A stretch of 18,582 bases of DNA from Oehlia diaphana (lineage: Eukaryota; Glomeromycota; Glomeromycetes; Glomerales; Glomeraceae), in contig QZLH01000360.1 of assembly GCA_003833135.1 (NCBI GenBank), positions 34,944-53,525 of the forward strand, given 5' to 3'. Both the position numbers and the translations under genes were made by a program. The notes below the pieces were generated by a model, which was not told the DNA's origin, did no database searches, and worked only from the letters and a program-made list of their open reading frames with translations. Below, piece after piece: positions 955 to 18,582 of this stretch (position 1 is its first letter; every line of letters starts with the position of its first letter).

Positions 955-1390
955 TAGGGATGGCAACGGTCGGTCATGGTCGGTCATCGGTCGGTCATAA
1001 CCGGTCAAGAACCTTTGACCGACCGACCGACCGTTTGACCGACCGTTTGACCGATCCTGAAAACGTTTGCGAAATGTTTTTTTTTTATGAATTACTTAAT
1101 AAAAAACGTTTTCGCAACATTTTTTATTAAAATAATTAAAAAACGTTTGCGAAACATTTTTTTATTAAATTTTATATTAAAAAATGTTTCGCAAACGTTT
1201 TCAGGATCGGTTAAACGGTCAGTCAAATGGTCGGTCAAACGGTCGGTCAGACTGGTCGGTCAAACGGTCGGTTAAACGGTCGGTCAGACCGGTTGGTCAA
1301 ACGGTCGGTCAGAGGTCTTTGACCGACCGATATCGGTCACGGTCATGACCGGTCATAACCGGTTAATGACCGTGACCGTTGCCATCCCTA
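955..1390. mobile_element. Non-autonomous hAT-type MITE inserted in the TLDc exon
   Basis: The element is 436 bp with perfect 17-bp terminal inverted repeats (TAGGGATGGCAACGGTC). It is flanked by perfect 8-bp target duplications ATTAATAC at 947-954 and 1391-1398. Removing the element and one duplication restores alignment with the paralogue, which proves insertion. An 8-bp duplication and a TAGGG terminus fit the hAT superfamily. The subterminal regions are filled with GGTCGGTCAAAC-like tandem motifs in both orientations, and the centre carries several AACGTTTGCGAAA motifs in alternating orientation, so most of the element can fold back on itself. It has no transposase; the open frame at 1087-1275 is a by-product of the repeats. 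Confidence 0.93.
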
Positions 1391-1398
1391 ATTAATAC
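1391..1398. repeat. Right 8-bp target site duplication (ATTAATAC)
   Basis: Perfect partner of 947-954. It directly follows the right terminal repeat GTTGCCATCCCTA. Confidence 0.9.
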
Positions 1399-2506
1399 CA
1401 TCAATACTACCTCGATAAATAAGATCAAATTTATAACGTAAAGTCCAGAAATCTTCTTTATTAATCCATTTAAGAATTATTTTTGCGAGTTTTTGTTTGA
1501 TAATATTTGAATCAAATTTTCCTATTCTAGGTGGTAATGTTGTTATTTTAGGGAAGGTACCTTTATCATAAAATTCTTCAATTTCTTCATAAATTTGATT
1601 AGGGATAATATCTTTATACGGTTTGATTTTATTATTAAAATTATCAGAAGCAATATCCACAAATCGAATGAGAGGAATAAATTGATGTAATAATTCTTTC
1701 AATGCTTCATAGTCCTCGTTTCTGTTGCACTTCTCATTTACCGAAACAGTTACATTGCATTTCTCATTTTCCAAACCAGGAGTCTGTCCAATACCCATTT
1801 AATTAAGTGATCCAAATGACAACTTCTTTAATCGGTAAATTATCTCTCTCAAGAATTTTATAAAGAATATCTTTGTCTAAAGAAAGAAATTCATTTGAAG
1901 TAATAAATGCTTGTGTATTTTCACAAATAATTTCAAGGCAATAATCTTGTATTTTCTTGCAATTAACAATTTTAAACGCAATATGTAAAACAAGATAAAA
2001 ATTTTTTAGAACCCAATCAATTTGTTTTTCAATTAAATAACCTTGAACATAATTAAATAATTCATCAATGAGTAATTCATCCGATGTGATTAGTAATTCA
2101 AAAATATCTTCACCAGATTGTTCAGTTAAATCAAGTTTACCAACGTAAATATATCTAAATGTATATATTATTATTACATTACTTTTTTTAAAAAAAAAAT
2201 AAATTATTTAATTTAATATAAGAATATAGAAAAAAAATAAAATTATTCTTACCTTAAGATTAAATCGCAAACATTTGGTGTAATGTTTGTTTTGTTAAGT
2301 ATAATCATATCATTTTTCTTTGTAATCCAATTAGATGAAGGAGCACCTTTGAAATAAGGAGAACGAGCACGTAAAATTACTGAATGTGCACGAAATTCTT
2401 TTATATTTTCATTTTCGTCAACGTTAATAATAACATCATAATCATCGGCATCATTTAATATTAAGGAAAGGTCATTAGAAAGATTGGAATAGAAAAAGGA
2501 AACCAT

Positions 2507-3333
2507 TTTAAAAACGAAAATGAAAATGCAAGCTTAAGAGGTACATGCGATTTTTTTGCTTAAATGTAAGTTCAGTTATAAAGATTAATTTGGAAATAAA
2601 TGTTGATGATCAGAGCTTGTGTTGCGAGTAATTTGAAGTCACGTGATATGTACGAACGTCGGACGATGTCTAATTTTTTATTTTATTTTTGAATTTTTTA
2701 AATATTATTTTTACATTTTTATGTTTATCAGATTGTATTTCTTTTCTAAACAATAGATAAATAAATCCAAAAAAATAATTTCGCTATAGAAAATAATCGA
2801 TTCTATTTCTCCATAGATCTAGATATCCTTAGCCGCCGGCGGCCCTGAGCTTTTTAAGTCAATCGTGATCCAAAAAAAGAAATTTTTTTTTAATATATAT
2901 ACATAAATATAGGTCGGATGACCATTCCATGAAATGGTTTCAAGTAACACTATAAGCCTCAATAAAAGAAACCGAAAAACTAAATGTTCTTCATTTTCAT
3001 CATTAATGGAACGTTTAATGTTACTAAAGTAAATTCAAATCCTCTATAATTATATGAAATTTATTAAATAATAAGAAATTTATGGGTAGAATCTGTAGCG
3101 GTTCTTACCGTCTTCCGTAATAGGTACATCAGTATAGTTTCTTTGAAAGTTATCAAAATAAGTAATTATTTTTGATAATAGAATTGATAAATAACTTACT
3201 CTCTACTTTAGAACAAGAAGACTACAAGAAGTTACAGTCATGTTACGTGGCAAAGTCTACAAACTATATTACCTAATAGTGAACTATTTATGTAGATTAT
3301 CCAATATTAACTTACAGTATTTTGTATTATTAT
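2507..3333. other. Intergenic, no gene recognised
   Basis: The first 60 bases are the 5' flank of the dead gene (CATTTTCATTTTCGTTTTTAAA on its strand resembles the leader of the intact copy). A TCACGTGAT palindrome is at 2639-2647. A G/C-only 12-bp palindrome GCCGCCGGCGGC is at 2832-2843 in otherwise A/T-rich DNA. The part after about 2900 may hold further decayed 5' exons of the Kelch relic, but I could not align any. Confidence 0.4.
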
Positions 3334-5007: not shown

Positions 5008-5061
5008 GTGTCATTGGTAACTTGAACCTCTTGTAACTTTCATTTTCATTTTATTATTAAA

Positions 5062-6599
5062 ATGACTTCATCTTTCTATCCCAATCTTTCGAAAGACCTT
5101 TCATTAATCTTAGATGATGCCGATGAATATAATGTTATTATTAAAGTTGGTGAAAACGAAAATACAAAAGAATTTCGTGCACATTCAGTAATTTTACGTG
5201 CTCGTTCTCCTTATTTTAAAGGTGCCCTTTCATCTTATTGGGTTACAAAAAAGGATGACATGATTATGTTCAATAAGCCAAATATCAAACCAGATGTTTT
5301 TAACATGATTTTAAGGTAAAAATACTTTTAATTGAATTATATTCTTAGAGTATTTATTAATAAATTATTTATTTAATATACTGTATACTGTAAATATATT
5401 TATATAAATATTCTATATTTAGGTATATTTATACGGGTGAACTTAATTTGACAGGACAACTGAGTGAGAATATACTTAGACTTTTAATTGCATCTGATGA
5501 GCTGCTTCTTGAAGAATTAGTTAAATTTTTACAAGAATACTTAATTGAACAAAGAAAAAATTGGGTTCATAAAAATTTTGTTTTTGTCCTTAATACTGTA
5601 TGTAGCCTTACAAGTTGCAAGATTTTACAAGATCATTGTTTTGAAACCATTTGTTTTGATCCAGAGTTATTACTCGCTTCAGATAGCTTTCCCAAACTAG
5701 ACAAAGATATTCTTTATGACCTGCTTGAGCGAGATGACTTATTGATTCAAGAAATTGTTGTTTGGGATCATTTAATTAAATGGGGTATTGAACAAACTCC
5801 TGGTTTGGGAAGTTTGAATTGTGACAGAAACAAATGGAATAATGAGGATTATGAAGCATTAAAGGAAACGTTGAATGAATTTATTCCTCTCATTCGATTT
5901 ACGGAAATTTCTCTTGATGATTTTAATTATAAAATCAGGACATACAAAGATATTATTCCTAATCAAATTTATGAAGAAATTGAAAGATTTCATTACAAAG
6001 ATACCAAAGTTACTTTACCAACAATATTTAATATATCACCTAGAATAGGAAAACTTGATTCAAAAATTATTAAACCTAAACTTGCAAAAATAATTATTAA
6101 TTGGATTGATAAAAAAGATTCCTTTACCTTACGTTATAAATTTAATCTTATTTATCGTGGTAGTATTGATGGTATTAGTACCGAATCATTTAAAAATAAA
6201 TGTAAAGGTCAAGTAGAAAGTTTAGTTTTAGTTAAAGTTAAGCGAATAAATAAAATCTTTGGCGGATACAGTTCTATTGGGTTTAATTCGATTGGAGATA
6301 GTCTTTTACGTATTTATAATGGTAATCTACGATTTTATCATTCGTCAGATAACTTTGTTTTTTCATTTGAAAACGATGAAGATACTCAAAATATGAAAAT
6401 AAGTCGTGTGATAAATCATAATAAGGCTATATATGATTATCACACCACTGGATTTGATTTCGGTTTTAATTCATTGTTTATGTATCATGATCAATGTTTA
6501 TATGCTAATAATGATGACTATAATTATGAAAGTAATTTAAATACAAATGTAATTCATGATATTGAAGAAATTGAAACATTTATTGTAACTAAGCAATAA
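5062..6599 (+). CDS. BTB-BACK-TLDc domain protein, two exons
   Basis: Exons 5062-5315 and 5423-6599 are joined across a 107-bp GT-AG intron (donor GTAAAAAT, acceptor ATTTAG). The codon AG|G spans the junction and gives MILRYIYTGELN, a normal end of a BTB domain. The product is 476 residues. The BTB domain is at about 15-110 (FRAHSVILRARSPYF at 38-52). A BACK region follows at about 115-235, including KDILYDLLERDDL and VVWDHLIKWGI. TLDc is at about 296-475 with LRYKFNLIYRGSIDG, KIFGGYSSIGF and the terminal EIEEIETFIV motif. BTB domains dimerise and recruit Cullin-3 ligases, while TLDc domains bind V-ATPase or protect against oxidative stress. The true role of this fungal family is unknown. The TATA box is 62 bp upstream. 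A dead divergent paralogue lies at 529-2506. All domains are complete and in frame, so the gene is probably functional. Confidence 0.94.
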
Positions 6600-12523: not shown

Positions 12524-15500
12524 TTAATTTTCATCTGTTTTAATATATAAATAATCAAATAAATAAAATTAGCTTCATATAAATAATTTGCAAAAATTAA
12601 TTTCTCATATATATTATATAACATACCTAATGACTTCAAATCTTTAACTATATAATCATTCAAGTTATCACTTACTAGCACTTCATTCACATTTACGCTA
12701 GCTTGTGAATCTTCAGGCTTCAAATCTTTAATTATATAATCATTCAAATTATCACTTACTAACAATTCATTCACATTTACACTAGTTTGTGAATCTTCAG
12801 TTTCAAGACTTTCATTCAATTTTTTACTATTGAAATCAAGTAAGCGACTTATATAATATGCTTGTGGATGGGATTTAGTATCAAGATCATTATGCAAAAT
12901 TGGTGCATTTATAAATTCCATAACATTGTGTTTTAATTCTTCATTAATATCTTTGATTTCCTTTTCAAAAGGAAGATAAATCCATTCTTCAATAATATTT
13001 AAAACTTCTTCAGAAGTTGGCCTTTTTAATGGATCTTCATTCCAACACTTTTTCATCAAATCTACATAACATTGTGGAGTATTTTGAATAATTTCAGGAC
13101 GTTCACCTTTACAAATACTTAAACTAAGTTGAATATCATGTTCTCTATTACTAAATGGTGGTACTCCAGATGTAAATTCCCACATGATCATAGAAAAACT
13201 ATATATATCACTAGCTGGTGTATATGATCTGCCTCTTAAAATTTCAGGTGCCATAAATGGTACAACACCATAAATATCATCTTTTTCCAAAAATGATTTT
13301 GCAGGTCGACATAATCCTAAATCACTAATATAAATTTTATCTTCATTTATAACATTATGATTTAAAATATTACCATCATGAAAATCACAATGAATAAGAT
13401 TTTGTTTATGTATCTTATCAAGACCAGAAATAATATCATATAACATATGTAATTTTTGTTTCCAATCATTTTTGATTATTTTTGTTAAATTTCCTCTTAA
13501 ATTACCTTTGTTTGCATAATCCAATACAACCATATAATTCAAAGTATCTGGATTTCTTGTAAATCCATAAAATTTAATAATATCATTTGAATCTAAAAAA
13601 CTTTCATGAAATCTCCACTATAAATTAAATAATAATAATACATTAGAATAAAATAAATTAAAAAATTTTTTTTTAAAAAGAAATAAATAATAATAAATTA
13701 TCATACTTCATTTAAAAATTCATTTAAATTGTCATTTAAATTTTCATGACATTTAAGAACCACATCACTATTTACATCATTATTACCTAACCAAATAGCT
13801 TTATATATAACACCAAATCCTCCTTTATCAAGATATTCAACATTTTTAAATTTATTATAAGGAATCCATTTTAATCTTTTTTCAGAAATAAATTCATCAA
13901 TAATTGTATTTCCACTTTTTCCGAATCTATATAAATTTGAATATGTTGAAGTTTAAATTGTTTAAATTAAATATTATATAAAATTTAAAATTAAAAAAAC
14001 AATGATAATAATGATATCATACTTACTCTAAAATTTAATTGGGATTTAATAGTCGAATATATATAAACTTAGTTTTTGTATAAATATACATTTATAATAA
14101 CCCATAATTAATAACTTACCAACTAAAGTAACAAATAAAGAATTCAGTTAGCTAAAAATATAACTGAAATAAACATTATATAAGCCCTGTTCAATTCAAG
14201 ATCGTATCGCTCAAATCAGAAAAAAAATTAACCGGTCAAACTGCAGTTACAAATGTATAGCTCGATCGGATCATAAACAATAAATATGGTAGGCCGCTGG
14301 CACGCGTCACGTTAGTTTATCAAAATTGATCAGAGGCGAACACCTGTTTTCGTGGATCGGTTTGACTGACCGCTGATCAATGATCGTTTTTGTAATCAAT
14401 CATTTAGGGGCAACATTTTGCGATCAATCCGATCCGATCTAGAATTGAACAGGGCTATAATAAACAATGAAAATAACTAATGACTCACATGCTATAGCAA
14501 TATTATTAAATAAAAGAATTTAGTTAGTTTAAATTGTATGTATAAATATGTAATAATAGAATTAAATGAATAATTTGTAACTTACAATCTATTTAATAAA
14601 GAAATTAGTTAGTTCAGATTAATGTAAATAAGTAATAATAAAATTAAATAACTCACCTCCTATATTATTAAATATTAAAGAATTTAATTAGTTAATATAC
14701 ATATAAATATATTATAATATGTAATAACAAAATTCAATAAATAACTTATAACCTACCAACTAAAGGAAATTACCAAATAATTTTTAATAAAAGAATTTTG
14801 TTTAATTTAGATTATATGCAAATATTATATGAATATGCGATAGAATTAAATAAATAACTTATAACTTACTAACTAAAAGAAATCACCAAAAATAAAGAAT
14901 TAATTAGTTCAAATTATGCAAATATATTTTTATAAAGGTGTGATAATAGAATTAAATAAATAACTTACGAGCTATATTAAACAATTTTTTAAATAAAGAA
15001 TTTAGTCAGTCAAAAAATTAAACGCAAATAATATGACAATAGAAATAAAAAAACTTACTCCCTATATTATTAATTTTTTTTTAATATAGAATTTGGTTAG
15101 CTCAACTTATATACAATATTATATAAATATGTAATAATAAATAACTTACCCCCTATATTATTAAATATTTTTAAATAAAGAATTTAGTTAGCTCAAATTA
15201 TTTATAATATGTAATAATAAAATTAAATATATAACTTGTAACTTACCAACTAAAGAAATTATAATCAAACAGTTTTTTAAATAAAAAATTAGTTAGTTTA
15301 AATTATATGCGAATATTATTTAATTATGTAATAATCTAAATAACTTACGAACTATATTAAATAAAATAATTTTAAATAAAGAATTTAGTTAGTCTAAATT
15401 ATATATAAATGTTATAATAATAAATTAAATAAATAACTTACTCCCTATATTATTAAATAATTTTTTTAAATAAGAAGTTTTAGTTGTAATTACATATAAA

Positions 15501-17611
15501 TATTATATAAATAAATTAAATAAATAACTTACTTCCTGCGTTATTAAATAATTTTTTTAAATAAAGAATAATTAGTTTAAATTATATATATATATTATAT
15601 AAATATGTAATAATAAAATTAAATAATTAACTCACCCCCTATATTATTAATAATTTAGAATTATGTTAGTCTAAATTATATGCACGTATTTTATAAATAT
15701 GCAATAATAGAATTAAACAAATAACTTACGAACTATATTATTAAATAATAAAGAACTTAGTTAGTTAAATCGTATATAAATATTGTATGAATATGTAATA
15801 ATAGAATAAAATAAGTAACTTACGAGCTATATTATTAAATAATTTTCAAATAAAGAATTGTTAGATTGTATTATATGTAAAATTATATATATAATAATGG
15901 AATTAAATAAATAACTTACACACTATATTATTAAACGAATCAAGAATTTAATTAGTTAAAATTATATTAATTATTATATATATCAAAATTAAGTAAAAAT
16001 AACTTACGAGCTATATATTATTAATAATTGTTAAATTATATGTAAGTATCTTATAAATATGTAATAATAGAATTAAATAAGTAACTTATAACTTACGTTC
16101 TAAATAATTTACAGATAATTTTTTAAATAAAAAAATTTAATTAGTTTAAATTATATGCAAATATATTACAATATGTAATAATAGAATTAAGTAAATAACT
16201 TACGAACTATATTATTGAATAATTTGTTTAAATAAAGAATATAGTTAGTTCAATTATGTGTAAATATTATACAAATTCGTAATAATAAAAAACTTACGAA
16301 CTATATTATTAAACAAATAAAAATTTAGTTAGTTAAATTATCGTTATATGCATATATATTTTTTAATATAAATAATGGAATTAAATAACTTACGGACTAT
16401 ATTATAGTGTAATTAAGAATTTAGTTAATTTAAATTATATGTAAATATATTATAAATATATAATAATATAATTAAACAAATAACTTACCAACTATATTAA
16501 TAAATGATTTTTTGAATAAAGAATTTAGTTAGTGTAATCTATATATAAATATGTAATAATAGAATTAAATAAATAACTTACGCTCTATATTATTAAATAA
16601 ATTTTTAAATGTTAGTTCAAATTATTATAAATATTATATAAGTAATAATGAAATTAAATAAATAACTTACTCCCTATATATTTAATAAATAAAGAATTTG
16701 ATTAGTTCAAATTATATGAAAATATGCAATAATAGAATTAAATATATAACTTATAACTTACGTTCTAAATAAATCACCAATTTTTTAAATAGAAAATTTA
16801 TTAGTTTAAAACTATATGTAATTACTATATTAATAAAATTTAGTAAATTACTTATAACTTACCAACTAAAGAATTTACCAAATAATTTCAAATAAAAGAT
16901 CTTAGTTAGTTTAAATTATATAAATAATAGAAATAGTTGATAACATATAACTTACACCCTGTAGTATTATTAATTATTTAATTAGTTAAATATAAGCATA
17001 ATATAAAACATACTGTAAATTAAATTATCACTTACAATCTAGTTATTTAAATGAAAATATATAATTAGTTGAGTTGTATAAAATATTAAACAAATAAATA
17101 TAATACCAATAATTATTGTAACCTACCAGCTGTAATATAATTGATTATTAATAATTATTAATTATTTAAACAAAAATTTAGATATTTCAATATCATGTAA
17201 AATAAAGTAATAAAACTAATGATTTAAATAATAAATAACTTACCAACTATAGTATTATTAATTATTAAATGAATTATTTAATTATATGAAATATAACAAA
17301 AATAAGTTAATTCCGTTATTATTCAATTATAAGATAACTATTAACTTACGAGCTAAATTATTTAATATAATATTATTATAAAAACATAGTTAGTTTAAAT
17401 TAATGTAAAAGTTACATTATTATAATTATGGTAATATTATAAATCATTTACAGATAATTTTTATTTATATATTTTATATTGTTAAATAACATTAAATTAC
17501 CTTTAGATTTCTTGGTACTATTTGAAACTGTTGAAATTTGATTAAAATTTCAGAATAATGCTATTTTGTATTAAATGTTTATGTATTGTGCCTTTTACCT
17601 TTGTGAGCCAT
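12524..17611 (-). CDS. TKL-like protein kinase with an array of 3-nt microexons
   Basis: The proposed model has 38 exons: 17599-17611 (ATG), 17501-17527, 32 exons of 3 nt from 17350-17352 to 14120-14122, the single base 14027, then 13707-13926, 12627-13617 and 12524-12534. All introns are GT-AG. The sum is 1359 nt, an open frame of 452 codons plus stop. The N-terminus reads MAHKVSNSTKKSK, then the microexon part, then E46 and FGKSGNTIIDEFI. The kinase domain is at about 75-331: glycine loop GGFGVIYK (81-88), lysine K104, catalytic HCDFHDGN (195-202, in place of HRDxxxxN), DLG (218-220, in place of DFG), APE (242-244) and RP (318-319). A 28-residue direct repeat follows (393-420, 421-448). The domain is complete, so activity is likely; the substrate is unknown. 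The kinase exons are near certain. The last intron (12535-12626) and everything upstream of 13926 are inferred. Without the last intron the protein ends at 12520 with 35 different residues. The N-terminal exon model has about 0.65 confidence. Confidence 0.85.
12631..12798 (-). repeat. Tandem 84-bp coding duplication in the kinase tail
   Basis: Two head-to-tail units, 12715-12798 and 12631-12714, each encode 28 residues of the type EDSQxSVNVNE, xLVSDNLNDYI, then xKDLK. The only visible amino-acid differences are Thr/Ala, Leu/Val, Ile/Val and the last residue, so the duplication is recent. Confidence 0.9.
14027..14027 (-). other. Proposed 1-nt microexon
   Basis: The minus strand reads TTTTAG, A, GTAAGTATGA. 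The A is the only base between a good acceptor and a strong donor. The flanking introns would be 92 bp (14028-14119) and 100 bp (13927-14026), the same size as the rest of the array. The last 3-nt exon leaves one base of a codon (G), and the kinase exon at 13926 needs two bases before its first A. This single A closes the gap and gives GAA (Glu46). Splicing without it would throw the kinase out of frame. The only other acceptor nearby would give a 41-nt exon with the wrong phase. Confidence 0.5.
14120..17352 (-). repeat. Array of 32 one-codon microexons in homologous introns
   Basis: On the minus strand every unit reads AG, three variable bases, then a donor (27 GTAAGT, 3 GTGAGT, 2 GTAGGT). 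Many introns have an AACTAACTAA branch-point motif about 40 nt before the next AG. Intron lengths are 68-114 bp except one of 366 bp that holds a MITE. Lowest + strand base and triplet in coding order: 17350 CTC, 17244 TTG, 17127 CTG, 17036 ATT, 16956 GGT, 16863 TTG, 16762 AAC, 16671 GGA, 16582 AGC, 16489 TTG, 16394 TCC, 16298 TTC, 16204 TTC, 16097 AAC, 16008 CTC, 15920 TGT, 15824 CTC, 15730 TTC, 15636 GGG, 15533 GAA, 15442 GGA, 15349 TTC, 15247 TTG, 15150 GGG, 15059 GGA, 14969 CTC, 14870 TTA, 14757 TTG, 14657 GAG, 14586 ATT, 14489 CAT, 14120 TTG. The phase set by the upstream exons (one base carried over) gives ALADWFERKLVL (residues 14-25) through RILGGTLIGDSF (34-45) without a stop. The other frame compatible with no stop is more hydrophobic but does not fit the neighbours' phase; the third has stops. 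Confidence 0.75.
14183..14456. mobile_element. MITE inside a microexon-array intron
   Basis: The element is 274 bp with 27-bp terminal inverted repeats having two mismatches; the first 15 bases AGCCCTGTTCAATTC are identical at both ends. It is much richer in G/C than the DNA around it and has repeated GATCGGATC-like motifs near the ends. The flanks share TATAA (if the termini are GCCCTG) or ATA (if AGCCCTG). A 3-bp duplication would suggest a PIF/Harbinger-like element, but this is not settled. It lengthens the intron between the triplets at 14489 and 14120 to 366 bp; without it that intron would be about 90 bp, the normal size. Confidence 0.85.
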
Positions 17612-18313: not shown

Positions 18314-18582
18314 TAGGGATGGCAACGGTCACGGTCATTAACCGGTTATGACCGGTCATGACCGTGACCGATATCGGTCGGTCAAAGACCTCTGACCGAC
18401 CGTTTGACCGACCGTTTAACCGATCCTGAAAACGTTTGCGAAACGTCTTTTAATATAAAATTTAATAAAAAAATGTTTCGCAAACGTTTTTTAATTATTT
18501 TAATAGAAAACGTTGCGTCAACGTTTTTTATTAAGTATTTCATAAAAAAAAAACGTTTCGCAAACGTTTTCAGGATCGGTTA
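18314..18582 (-). mobile_element. Second copy of the hAT MITE family, inverted and cut by the window end
   Basis: It begins with TAGGGATGGCAACGGTCACG, matching the reverse complement of the right end of the element at 955-1390. Then follow the GACCGACCGTTT repeats, the AAAACGTTTGCGAAA core motifs and CAGGATCGGTTA. Its subterminal repeat block is shorter than the corresponding block of the first copy. The base octamer before it is CACTAAAA; the partner duplication lies outside the window. Confidence 0.9.

What the first reader, a model, noticed from the sequence alone, without database searches (positions are those of the whole stretch)
14120..17352. A kinase N-terminus encoded one codon per exon by 32 consecutive 3-nt microexons
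Seen: 32 sites on the kinase strand read AG, three bases, GTRRGT, spaced mostly 68-114 bp apart, many intervening introns with a CTAAC branch-point motif. Joining them with an ATG exon (17599-17611), a 27-nt exon (17501-17527), a 1-nt exon (14027) and the kinase exons gives one open frame of 1359 nt. Known: single 3-nt microexons exist, and micro-exon genes in schistosomes use many small in-frame exons. I know of no described gene with such a run of single-codon exons. Inferred: all 32 are spliced in. Gene finders and standard aligners would miss this and call the region a minisatellite.
Basis: partly seen in the sequence, partly recalled or inferred. Interest (0 to 1): 0.97.

Follow-up and report, generated by a model that had tools for sequence, protein, structure and literature searches.

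The report
Kinase segment built from three-base exons
In what is likely a root-symbiotic soil fungus, a family of kinase genes carries arrays of up to 55 three-base pieces, each set between splice signals, that are predicted to be spliced together into a highly variable protein segment which the matching public model of this gene lacks.

Summary
In detail: 32 AG-NNN-GTRRG sites lie on the minus strand at 14120-17352 (33 in the whole window, 0.59 expected). The reading holds too, and extends to a family. Upstream of 20 fetched paralogous kinase exons (20 of the 21 best matches) there are 3 to 49 such sites each; loci fetched later reach 55. The key test is genetic. In 30 arrays, 729 neighbouring triplet pairs joined in phase 1 (each codon takes one base from one exon and two from the next) give 0 stop codons against 33.5 expected from re-pairing; phase 2 gives 99. 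In the first 24 arrays, pairs that skip one triplet carry stops at chance (23 of 490, 21 expected). Stops are thus avoided only between neighbours, which implies ordered splicing and translation. A frame-restoring 1-nt exon is found in 28 of 29 loci examined. The segment's ends are conserved; its middle varies, each triplet being a variable island in a conserved intron cassette. None of 65 public relatives carries the window's decoded segment; two partial R. irregularis models seem to join such triplets in another frame. No RNA evidence was available; function (variable recognition region) is inferred.

The parts
17599..17611 (-). Exon 1, ATG exon, 13 nt (MAHK + 1 nt)
   Evidence: Sequence; ATG exon ending AAAG|GTAA also in paralogues such as L010, L020, L021, L026, L027
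17501..17527 (-). Exon 2, 27 nt, (V)SNSTKKSK + 1 nt
   Evidence: Sequence; homologous exon in paralogues, together with exon 1 ending in phase 1 in 7 of 7 found by script; public R. irregularis protein P0045 starts with a matching exon 1+2 peptide
17350..17352 (-). 3-nt exon 1, CTC
17244..17246 (-). 3-nt exon 2, TTG
17127..17129 (-). 3-nt exon 3, CTG
17036..17038 (-). 3-nt exon 4, ATT
16956..16958 (-). 3-nt exon 5, GGT
16863..16865 (-). 3-nt exon 6, TTG
16762..16764 (-). 3-nt exon 7, AAC
16671..16673 (-). 3-nt exon 8, GGA
16582..16584 (-). 3-nt exon 9, AGC
16489..16491 (-). 3-nt exon 10, TTG
16394..16396 (-). 3-nt exon 11, TCC
16298..16300 (-). 3-nt exon 12, TTC
16204..16206 (-). 3-nt exon 13, TTC
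16097..16099 (-). 3-nt exon 14, AAC
16008..16010 (-). 3-nt exon 15, CTC
15920..15922 (-). 3-nt exon 16, TGT
15824..15826 (-). 3-nt exon 17, CTC
15730..15732 (-). 3-nt exon 18, TTC
15636..15638 (-). 3-nt exon 19, GGG
15533..15535 (-). 3-nt exon 20, GAA
15442..15444 (-). 3-nt exon 21, GGA
15349..15351 (-). 3-nt exon 22, TTC
15247..15249 (-). 3-nt exon 23, TTG
15150..15152 (-). 3-nt exon 24, GGG
15059..15061 (-). 3-nt exon 25, GGA
14969..14971 (-). 3-nt exon 26, CTC
14870..14872 (-). 3-nt exon 27, TTA
14757..14759 (-). 3-nt exon 28, TTG
14657..14659 (-). 3-nt exon 29, GAG
14586..14588 (-). 3-nt exon 30, ATT
14489..14491 (-). 3-nt exon 31, CAT
14120..14122 (-). 3-nt exon 32, TTG
14027..14027 (-). 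1-nt exon (A), restores the kinase frame
   Evidence: Such a site before the kinase exon in 23 of 23 loci (A in 22, T in L026) and in 5 of 6 later arrays (not found in L032)
13707..13926 (-). Kinase exon 1 (FGKSGNTIIDEF..GGFG..), 220 nt
   Evidence: own-genome matches nearly all begin at its first residues
12627..13617 (-). Kinase exon 2 (catalytic core and C-terminal tail)
   Evidence: PF07714, PF00069; end placed from public protein P0001
12524..12534 (-). Last exon (..DEN stop)
   Evidence: Read by eye to fit the C-terminus of P0001; not tested separately

Best explanation
The window holds a kinase gene whose N-terminal segment is predicted to be encoded by 32 consecutive 3-nt exons and one 1-nt exon, which the spliceosome would join in order and the ribosome would read in phase 1, so that every codon straddles two exons. 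Shown: the sites, their recurrence in paralogues, the absence of stops only between neighbouring triplets and only in phase 1, and the recurring 1-nt exon. Inferred: inclusion is mostly constitutive and relies on intron definition, since each intron is short (65-124 nt, median 95 in 574 introns) and has its own strong donor and in most cases a CT[AG]A[CT] branch-like motif. Inferred: each intron-plus-triplet is a cassette that adds or removes one residue without breaking the frame, so the middle of the segment evolves freely in length and residue while its ends (L/F-x-D-W.. and ..F-E-FGKSGN) stay fixed. Inferred with low confidence (about 0.3): the variable segment is a recognition surface in front of a TKL-like kinase, for instance for self/non-self or partner recognition.
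For: Sites: 32 in the array, 0.59 expected in the whole window. Family: 20 of 20 fetched paralogues have 3 to 49 strict sites just upstream of the kinase exon; they are 20 of the 21 best matches, and the one left out, on C52, shows 5 sites in the short stretch held (L003). In 21 loci AG-N3-GTRAGT occurs 527 times in sense and once in antisense; other lengths at most 8 in sense except N1 with 57. Phase-1 stops between neighbours: 0 of 574 pairs in 24 arrays (25 expected), 0 of 323 distinct pair types (15.1 expected); in six further arrays 0 of 155 (8.5 expected, P 0.0002); together 0 of 729 (33.5 expected; phase 2 has 99). Skip-one pairs in the first 24 arrays: 23 of 490, 21 expected. Of 38 codons expected at least 3 times, only the three stops are never seen. 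Exon 1+2 end in phase 1 in 7 of 7 paralogues where both were found. 1-nt exon in 28 of 29 loci. Triplets 40% GC, intron cores 10%. Whole genome: 728 strict 3-nt sites against 6 for the reversed pattern; the 4-nt version 1 against 8.
Against: No transcript or peptide was available. None of 65 public relatives carries the window's decoded segment, and a decoded paralogue start found nothing. Two partial R. irregularis models (P0005, P0014) have N-terminal strings that look like triplets joined in phase 0, not phase 1. The arrays are related by descent, so the pair counts are not fully independent. In the six later arrays skip-one pairs were also low (2 of 121, 4.9 expected, P 0.06). Of 96 gaps of 150-330 bp in the arrays only 33 were filled. 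Five array fragments (L031, L033-L036) show no kinase exon in the stretch fetched, two of them next to assembly gaps. Skipping the whole array, or any one of 30 of the 32 triplets, also leaves the window's frame open, so openness alone does not prove inclusion.
Confidence: 0.92

Rival explanations
1. The array is a non-coding minisatellite with splice-like motifs, removed as one large intron or lying upstream of the real start.
For: Tandem Repeats Finder reports repeats with periods of 84-201 bp here. Public model P0001 starts inside the intron after the 1-nt exon, with its ATG at 14020, and ignores the array. Skipping the whole array keeps the frame.
Against: Phase-1 stops between neighbours are absent (0 of 729, 33.5 expected), with no such deficit in phase 2 or in skip-one pairs of the first 24 arrays. 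Non-coding DNA has no reason to avoid stops across 95-nt gaps in one phase only. Triplets are far richer in GC than the introns.
Confidence: 0.03
2. The triplets are joined, but the array is read in phase 0, through a 5-nt version (AGTAA) of the last small exon in place of the 1-nt exon.
For: Partial R. irregularis models P0005 and P0014 end ..LLSK-FGKSGN, as CTT TTG AGTAA would read, and 24 of 24 and 31 of 36 of their upstream residues are L, G, I, M, R, F or V, as phase-0 triplets are. A second GT lies 4 nt after the first in 21 of 23 loci (my count). Only 5 of 876 triplets are stops.
Against: Exon 1+2 end in phase 1 in the window and in 7 of 7 paralogues; with the 5-nt exon the window's kinase would be out of frame (my arithmetic). 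Phase-0 stops are rare only because TA and TG starts are rare: given the first two bases 7.6 are expected and 5 seen, while phase 1 has 0 against 33.5. P0005 and P0014 lack a start, and their similarity to our arrays is no better than that of shuffled strings.
Confidence: 0.05
3. The array is a splicing lottery: triplets are included optionally, so one gene yields very many in-frame N-termini.
For: All triplets share one phase; 30 of 32 single skips in the window stay open, and so does skipping all 32.
Against: If skipping were frequent and mattered, skip-one junctions should avoid stops too. They do not in the first 24 arrays (23 of 490, 21 expected); the six later arrays are weakly low (2 of 121, 4.9 expected). 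GTAAGT opens 544 of 574 introns, though the strict site definition favours such donors.
Confidence: 0.12
4. The introns are mobile introner-like elements that invaded an ordinary exon, so the triplets are remnants of that exon, not units amplified with their introns.
For: Introns 95-98% alike in different arrays (22 pairs) sit next to triplets whose base identity is 0.38 (left) and 0.58 (right), against about 0.32 for random pairs.
Against: Insertions at random would not leave exactly 3 nt each time. Neighbouring triplets are alike less often than chance (20 of 574, 56.7 expected), the opposite of a 3-bp target-site duplication. Array lengths vary greatly between paralogues, and unit blocks recur in order inside one array (L023, L025).
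Confidence: 0.2
5. The arrays belong to decaying pseudogenes.
For: Some fragments lack a visible kinase exon (L033, L034, L036), and a few kinase exon matches contain stops.
Against: The window kinase is open over all exons and matches PF07714 and PF00069. Absence of stops in 729 junctions means selection still acts.
Confidence: 0.03

Closest known systems
Micro-exon genes (MEG) of Schistosoma mansoni (PMC10526429; abstract and passages seen)
   Same: Genes built of many small exons, mostly multiples of three, giving variable proteins.
   Different: MEG exons are given as 3-81 bp in the abstract and as 6-81 bp, mostly 15 bp, in the text; introns up to 5 kbp; secreted proteins. Here dozens of exons are exactly 3 nt, introns are about 95 nt and form a repeat family, and the product is a kinase.
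Single-nucleotide exons: Arabidopsis APC11 (PMC4674806) and Fusarium CYP621A (PMC12940212) (abstracts seen; opening paragraph of the first)
   Same: A 1-nt exon needed to keep the frame and missed by annotation; the second is fungal, with read support according to its abstract.
   Different: Isolated events in one gene each; here the 1-nt exon closes an array of 3-nt exons and recurs in 28 of 29 loci of a family.
Bicycle and megacycle genes of aphids (PMC9168663; passages seen)
   Same: Many small internal exons of one phase, one gene with more than 100 microexons, fast evolution.
   Different: Exons are larger than one codon (recalled); a putative effector family, not kinases; no repeated intron-codon cassette in the passages seen.
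Small microexons of plants (PMC8831610; search listing with start of abstract only)
   Same: Exons of 15 nt or less that gene annotation misses.
   Different: Nothing in the listing suggests runs of dozens of 3-nt exons.

Membership tests
Protein kinase, PF07714/PF00069 (TKL-like) | Kinase domain match and catalytic motifs | tested here: met
   PF07714 E 1.9e-33, PF00069 E 5.4e-33; solved relatives among the best 60 rows include CTR1, TAK1 and RIPK kinases, the top row being an EGFR chain; motif residues (LK, HCD, DLG, APE) read by eye
Micro-exon genes (MEG) | Many short internal exons that are multiples of three | tested here: met
   32 sites of 3 nt in the window; 30 arrays with 3-55 strict sites; exon status rests on the stop test, not on RNA
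Micro-exon genes (MEG) | Secreted product with N-terminal signal peptide | not tested
   Decoded start MAHKVSNSTKKSK looks charged, not like a signal peptide (by eye)
Micro-exon genes (MEG) | Relationship by descent to schistosome MEGs | not tested
   Not compared; the 65 protein relatives found are Rhizophagus proteins, named as kinases or unnamed
Introner elements | Near-identical introns at many sites | tested here: met
   Introns of 95-98% identity in different arrays, 22 pairs
Introner elements | Target-site duplication flanking each intron | tested here: not met
   Neighbouring triplets identical in 20 of 574 cases, 56.7 expected; only a 3-nt duplication was tested
Non-coding minisatellite | No coding constraint on the unit | tested here: not met
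   0 phase-1 stops in 729 junctions, 33.5 expected

The most novel reading that the evidence does not exclude
A new kind of hypervariable locus: the variable segment of a whole kinase family is written one residue per intron-codon cassette. Cassettes recombine like beads on a string while the codon between two conserved splice sites changes far faster than its own flanks, giving the fungus a fast-evolving recognition repertoire that gene finders miss or misframe, perhaps used in self/non-self recognition or further diversified by splicing.
Probability: 0.35. Interest if true: 0.98.

Novelty: categorically new. Interest (0 to 1): 0.95.

Why it matters
If right, a protein segment can be encoded one residue per exon, for dozens of exons in a row and in a whole gene family, which stretches what the spliceosome is thought to do. 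It would give a new route to hypervariable proteins: because every cassette is frame-neutral, a residue can be gained, lost or swapped by recombination in intron sequence. It would also mean that public protein sets of these fungi lack or misread a variable region in many kinases. The claim is cheap to test with existing RNA reads and peptides.

Tried and rejected
Protein searches for a public protein carrying the decoded segment: (region 1-110 of the decoded protein) gave 65 proteins, all Rhizophagus. I read 43 of the 65 whole and listed the N-termini of all 65 by script: none matches the decoded 32 residues (best E 0.75, inside the kinase domain). P0025 covers 96% of the query region at 53% identity: it shares KKSKAL-x-D with the decoded start and then differs; without its gene I cannot say whether that stretch is an ordinary exon, a readout of triplets or a prediction artefact. 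Its closest locus here (L032) carries an array with different triplets. P0005 and P0014 look like joined triplets in phase 0; a search with P0005 found only P0014 and two models that begin at MSK-FGKSGN. P0012, P0018 and P0056 have further N-termini whose origin I did not resolve. A decoded paralogue N-terminus found nothing.

Phase 2 was rejected (75 stops in 574 pairs). Phase 0 was rejected for the reasons given under the second rival. The idea that the window alone proves inclusion was rejected: only 0.65 stops expected by re-pairing. The 66 junctions made by filling gaps gave no stop, but only about 3 would be expected there by chance, so I give them little weight. Literature: nine paper searches showed no report of such arrays in Rhizophagus or of runs of 3-nt exons; one search listed 20 of 33 papers and one search listed 25 of 53, I judged by titles and abstract starts, and the library holds open-licence papers only, so absence is weak. 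Rows left out of counts: L033, L035 and L036 were left out of the stop test (L033 separately gave no stop); of L001-L008 none was used in counts (seven overlap the window or later loci; L003 has 5 sites and 4 pairs without a stop, by eye); L023 was left out of the disjoint-pair comparison as a starting unit because its alternating repeats dominate.


Full report
What is there. On the minus strand of the window, 32 sites read AG-NNN-GTRRG between 17352 and 14122. Counting both strands of the whole window, AGNNNGTRRGT occurs 33 times, 32 of them in this stretch, while dinucleotide-preserving shuffles give 0.59 on average and 3 at most. Joining the ATG exon, the 27-nt exon, the 32 triplets, the 1-nt exon and the kinase exons gives an open frame that decodes as MAHKVSNSTKKSK-ALADWFERKLVLLQPLSLRGRILGGTLIGDSF-E-FGKSGNTIIDEF..., followed by a kinase domain. 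Because the exon before the array ends in phase 1, each codon takes the last base of one triplet and the first two of the next: no codon lies within one exon.

Where it comes from. The window's genome is held (108.8 Mb, 1672 contigs). Public protein P0001, named as Rhizophagus diaphanus, is identical over the part of the kinase exon it covers (100% over 58% of residues 1-110) and reads on through the decoded kinase. I infer that the window is from that fungus or a near-identical one. P0001 begins MISLLSL, which is encoded from an ATG at 14020, inside the intron just after the 1-nt exon; the public model thus has another start and lacks the array.

It is a family. A search of the own genome with the kinase exon gave 151 matches, and the best ones nearly all begin at the same residue, where an intron lies. 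I fetched the upstream DNA of 20 of the 21 best matches after the window; C52 was left out because its contig ends soon after, but the short stretch held for it (L003) has 5 sites. All 20 have strict triplet sites upstream, from 3 (L022) and 5 (L015, L017) to 49 (L009). Over the window and these 20 loci, AG-N3-GTRAGT occurs 527 times in sense and once in antisense; AG-N1 occurs 57 times in sense (the 1-nt exon, and also triplets that themselves begin with AG), and other lengths from 0 to 30 at most 8 times. Across the genome, a strict 3-nt pattern has 728 matches against 6 for the reversed control, and the same pattern with 4 nt has 1 against 8. More distant paralogues on contigs C37, C58, C106, C324 and C573 also have sites upstream of their kinase exon (by comparing places). 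Five array fragments fetched because they matched the pattern, L031 and L033-L036, show no kinase exon in the stretch held; L031 and L035 run into assembly gaps.

The decisive test. If neighbouring triplets are joined and translated in phase 1, stop codons must be absent between neighbours in that phase and nowhere else. In 24 arrays with 681 triplets and 574 adjacent pairs at most 130 bp apart, phase 1 gives 0 stops where re-pairing the same triplets within arrays predicts 25 (sd 3.9, lowest of 2000 shuffles 12); phase 2 gives 75. Counting each pair type once gives 0 of 323, with 15.1 expected. Pairs that skip one triplet give 23 of 490 (21.0 expected), skip two 21 of 419 (17.1), skip three 20 of 360 (15.2). 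I then repeated the test on six arrays not used before: 0 of 155 in phase 1 (8.5 expected, P 0.0002); skip-one pairs there were 2 of 121 (4.9 expected, P 0.06), a weak hint the other way. Together: 0 of 729 (33.5 expected), phase 2 has 99. Of 38 phase-1 codons expected at least three times, only TAG (14.7), TAA (9.6) and TGA (9.2) were never seen. In phase 0, 5 of 876 triplets are stops; given their first two bases 7.6 are expected, so there is no clear avoidance there. Related arrays are not independent draws, but the distinct-pair count and the six later arrays give the same answer. I know of no other cause than ordered joining and translation for a deficit that appears in one phase, between neighbours only, across about 95 nt of intron.

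Further support. The phase is set independently upstream: in the window and in 7 of 7 paralogues in which a script found both exons (L010, L020, L021, L026, L027, L029, L031), the ATG exon plus exon 2 are open and end in phase 1. Public R. irregularis protein P0045 starts MGQYIGKASSVIKEFVESGTEETK, a matching peptide, before its model appears to jump into the kinase exon. The 1-nt exon site lies at its place in 23 of 23 loci, A in 22 and T in L026, where the kinase exon start also differs; L013 and L017 have the donors GTTAG and GCAAG. In the six later arrays it was found in five and not in L032. Leaving it out of the window's transcript destroys the kinase frame. Of 96 gaps of 150-330 bp inside arrays, 33 could be filled with one triplet having a weaker donor; in L027 this restores the conserved start LDDW. 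The 574 introns are 65-124 nt long (median 95); GTAAGT opens 544 of them; CTAAC lies 8-60 nt before the 3' end in 291 (15 in shuffled introns) and CT[AG]A[CT] in 407 (98 in shuffled). Triplets are 40% GC and intron cores 10%.

What the public models show. Of 65 relatives, none carries the window's decoded residues. Many begin at or just before the kinase exon; eight begin MSK followed by F[GR]KSG (my count). Two partial R. irregularis models differ: P0005 and P0014 have 24 and 36 residues before SK-FGKSGN that consist almost wholly of L, G, I, M, R, F and V, the make-up of triplets read in phase 0, and end LL-SK, as CTT TTG AGTAA would read. Their strings are not more similar to our arrays than shuffled strings. 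The likely reading is that their gene models join dozens of such 3-nt exons but use a 5-nt version of the last small exon, without a start codon. That supports joining and disputes the frame. I keep phase 1 because of the stop test and the phase of exons 1 and 2.

What varies and what does not. In 17 of the 24 first arrays a start can be recognised by eye in the decoded runs: L or F, one residue, then D (13 of 17) or N, E, H, then W; in L031 the single residue is missing. Ends read ..SF..AF..PF or similar before E-FGKSGN. The middle differs in length and residues. Relative to re-pairing, W, L, N, F, D, K and E are enriched in phase 1, V and H depleted. The triplet is a variable island: in 285 pairs of units chosen by their far flanks, the three triplet positions differ in 42-51% of pairs and the nearby flank positions in 0-29%. 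In 19 disjoint best pairs whose flanks differ by 2.5%, the triplets differ by 53% per base; in 6 pairs with identical flanks, by 22%; in 35 pairs with flanks 21% apart, by 48%. Two readings fit: selection (or a mutation process) changes codons much faster than their introns, or introns spread between arrays without their codons. Neighbouring triplets are identical less often than chance (20 of 574, 56.7 expected), which speaks against single-unit duplication as the latest step and against a 3-bp target-site duplication.

How it probably works. Shown: sites, family, phase-1 constraint between neighbours, 1-nt exon. Inferred: the introns are recognised one by one (intron definition), spliced in turn, and the mRNA contains all triplets. 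Optional inclusion cannot be excluded, since 30 of 32 single skips in the window and the skip of the whole array stay open, but there is little sign of selection for it. Inferred and uncertain: the segment is a fast-evolving recognition surface of a cytoplasmic TKL-like kinase; no test of function was possible.

Comparison. Schistosome MEGs, aphid bicycle genes and isolated 1-nt exons in Arabidopsis and Fusarium are the nearest things I found. None of the passages seen describes a run of exons that are all one codon long, or a variable codon inside a repeated intron cassette. Nine paper searches showed no earlier report, in a library of open-licence papers. I call it categorically new as a way of encoding a protein segment, while each ingredient (microexons, 1-nt exons, short introns) is known.

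Noticed in passing
14176-14463: A MITE-like element with 34-nt inverted ends (85% complementary, AGCCCTGTTCAATTC core) sits inside the intron between triplets 31 and 32, which explains the one 369-bp spacing.
   Followed up: partly
14018-14027: The donor after the 1-nt exon is a tandem GTAAGT with a second GT 4 nt on (21 of 23 loci, my count); choosing the second would add AGTA-like bases and change the array's frame, which may be how some public models arose.
   Followed up: partly
12634-12800: Two tandem copies of an 84-bp unit in the kinase C-terminal tail (92% matches); several R. irregularis relatives have variable numbers of a similar repeat.
   Followed up: no
967-1325 and 18393-18582: Two palindromic, tandem-repeat-rich elements with CGGTCGGTCAAACGG and AACGTTTGCGAAACG motifs near the two ends of the window, likely copies of one mobile element.
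   Followed up: no
1388-2533 (-) and 5026-6599 (+): Two related genes in opposite orientation; the + copy has BACK and TLDc domains (PF07707, PF07534), and the minus copy's exon 1388-1798 had no Pfam match on its own.
   Followed up: no
L028, about 282 and 387 bases before the kinase exon: Two 6-nt exons (AATCTT, ATTCTT) where other arrays have two 3-nt exons, as if an intron between two triplets had been lost without changing the frame.
   Followed up: partly
L023 triplets 17-28; L025: Blocks of several triplets repeat in order inside one array (alternating TTG and AGC in L023; LNGRRT twice in L025), a sign of recent multi-unit duplication.
   Followed up: partly
3194-3204 (-): A single further AG-AGA-GTAAGTTATT site outside the array, near the chance expectation.
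   Followed up: no
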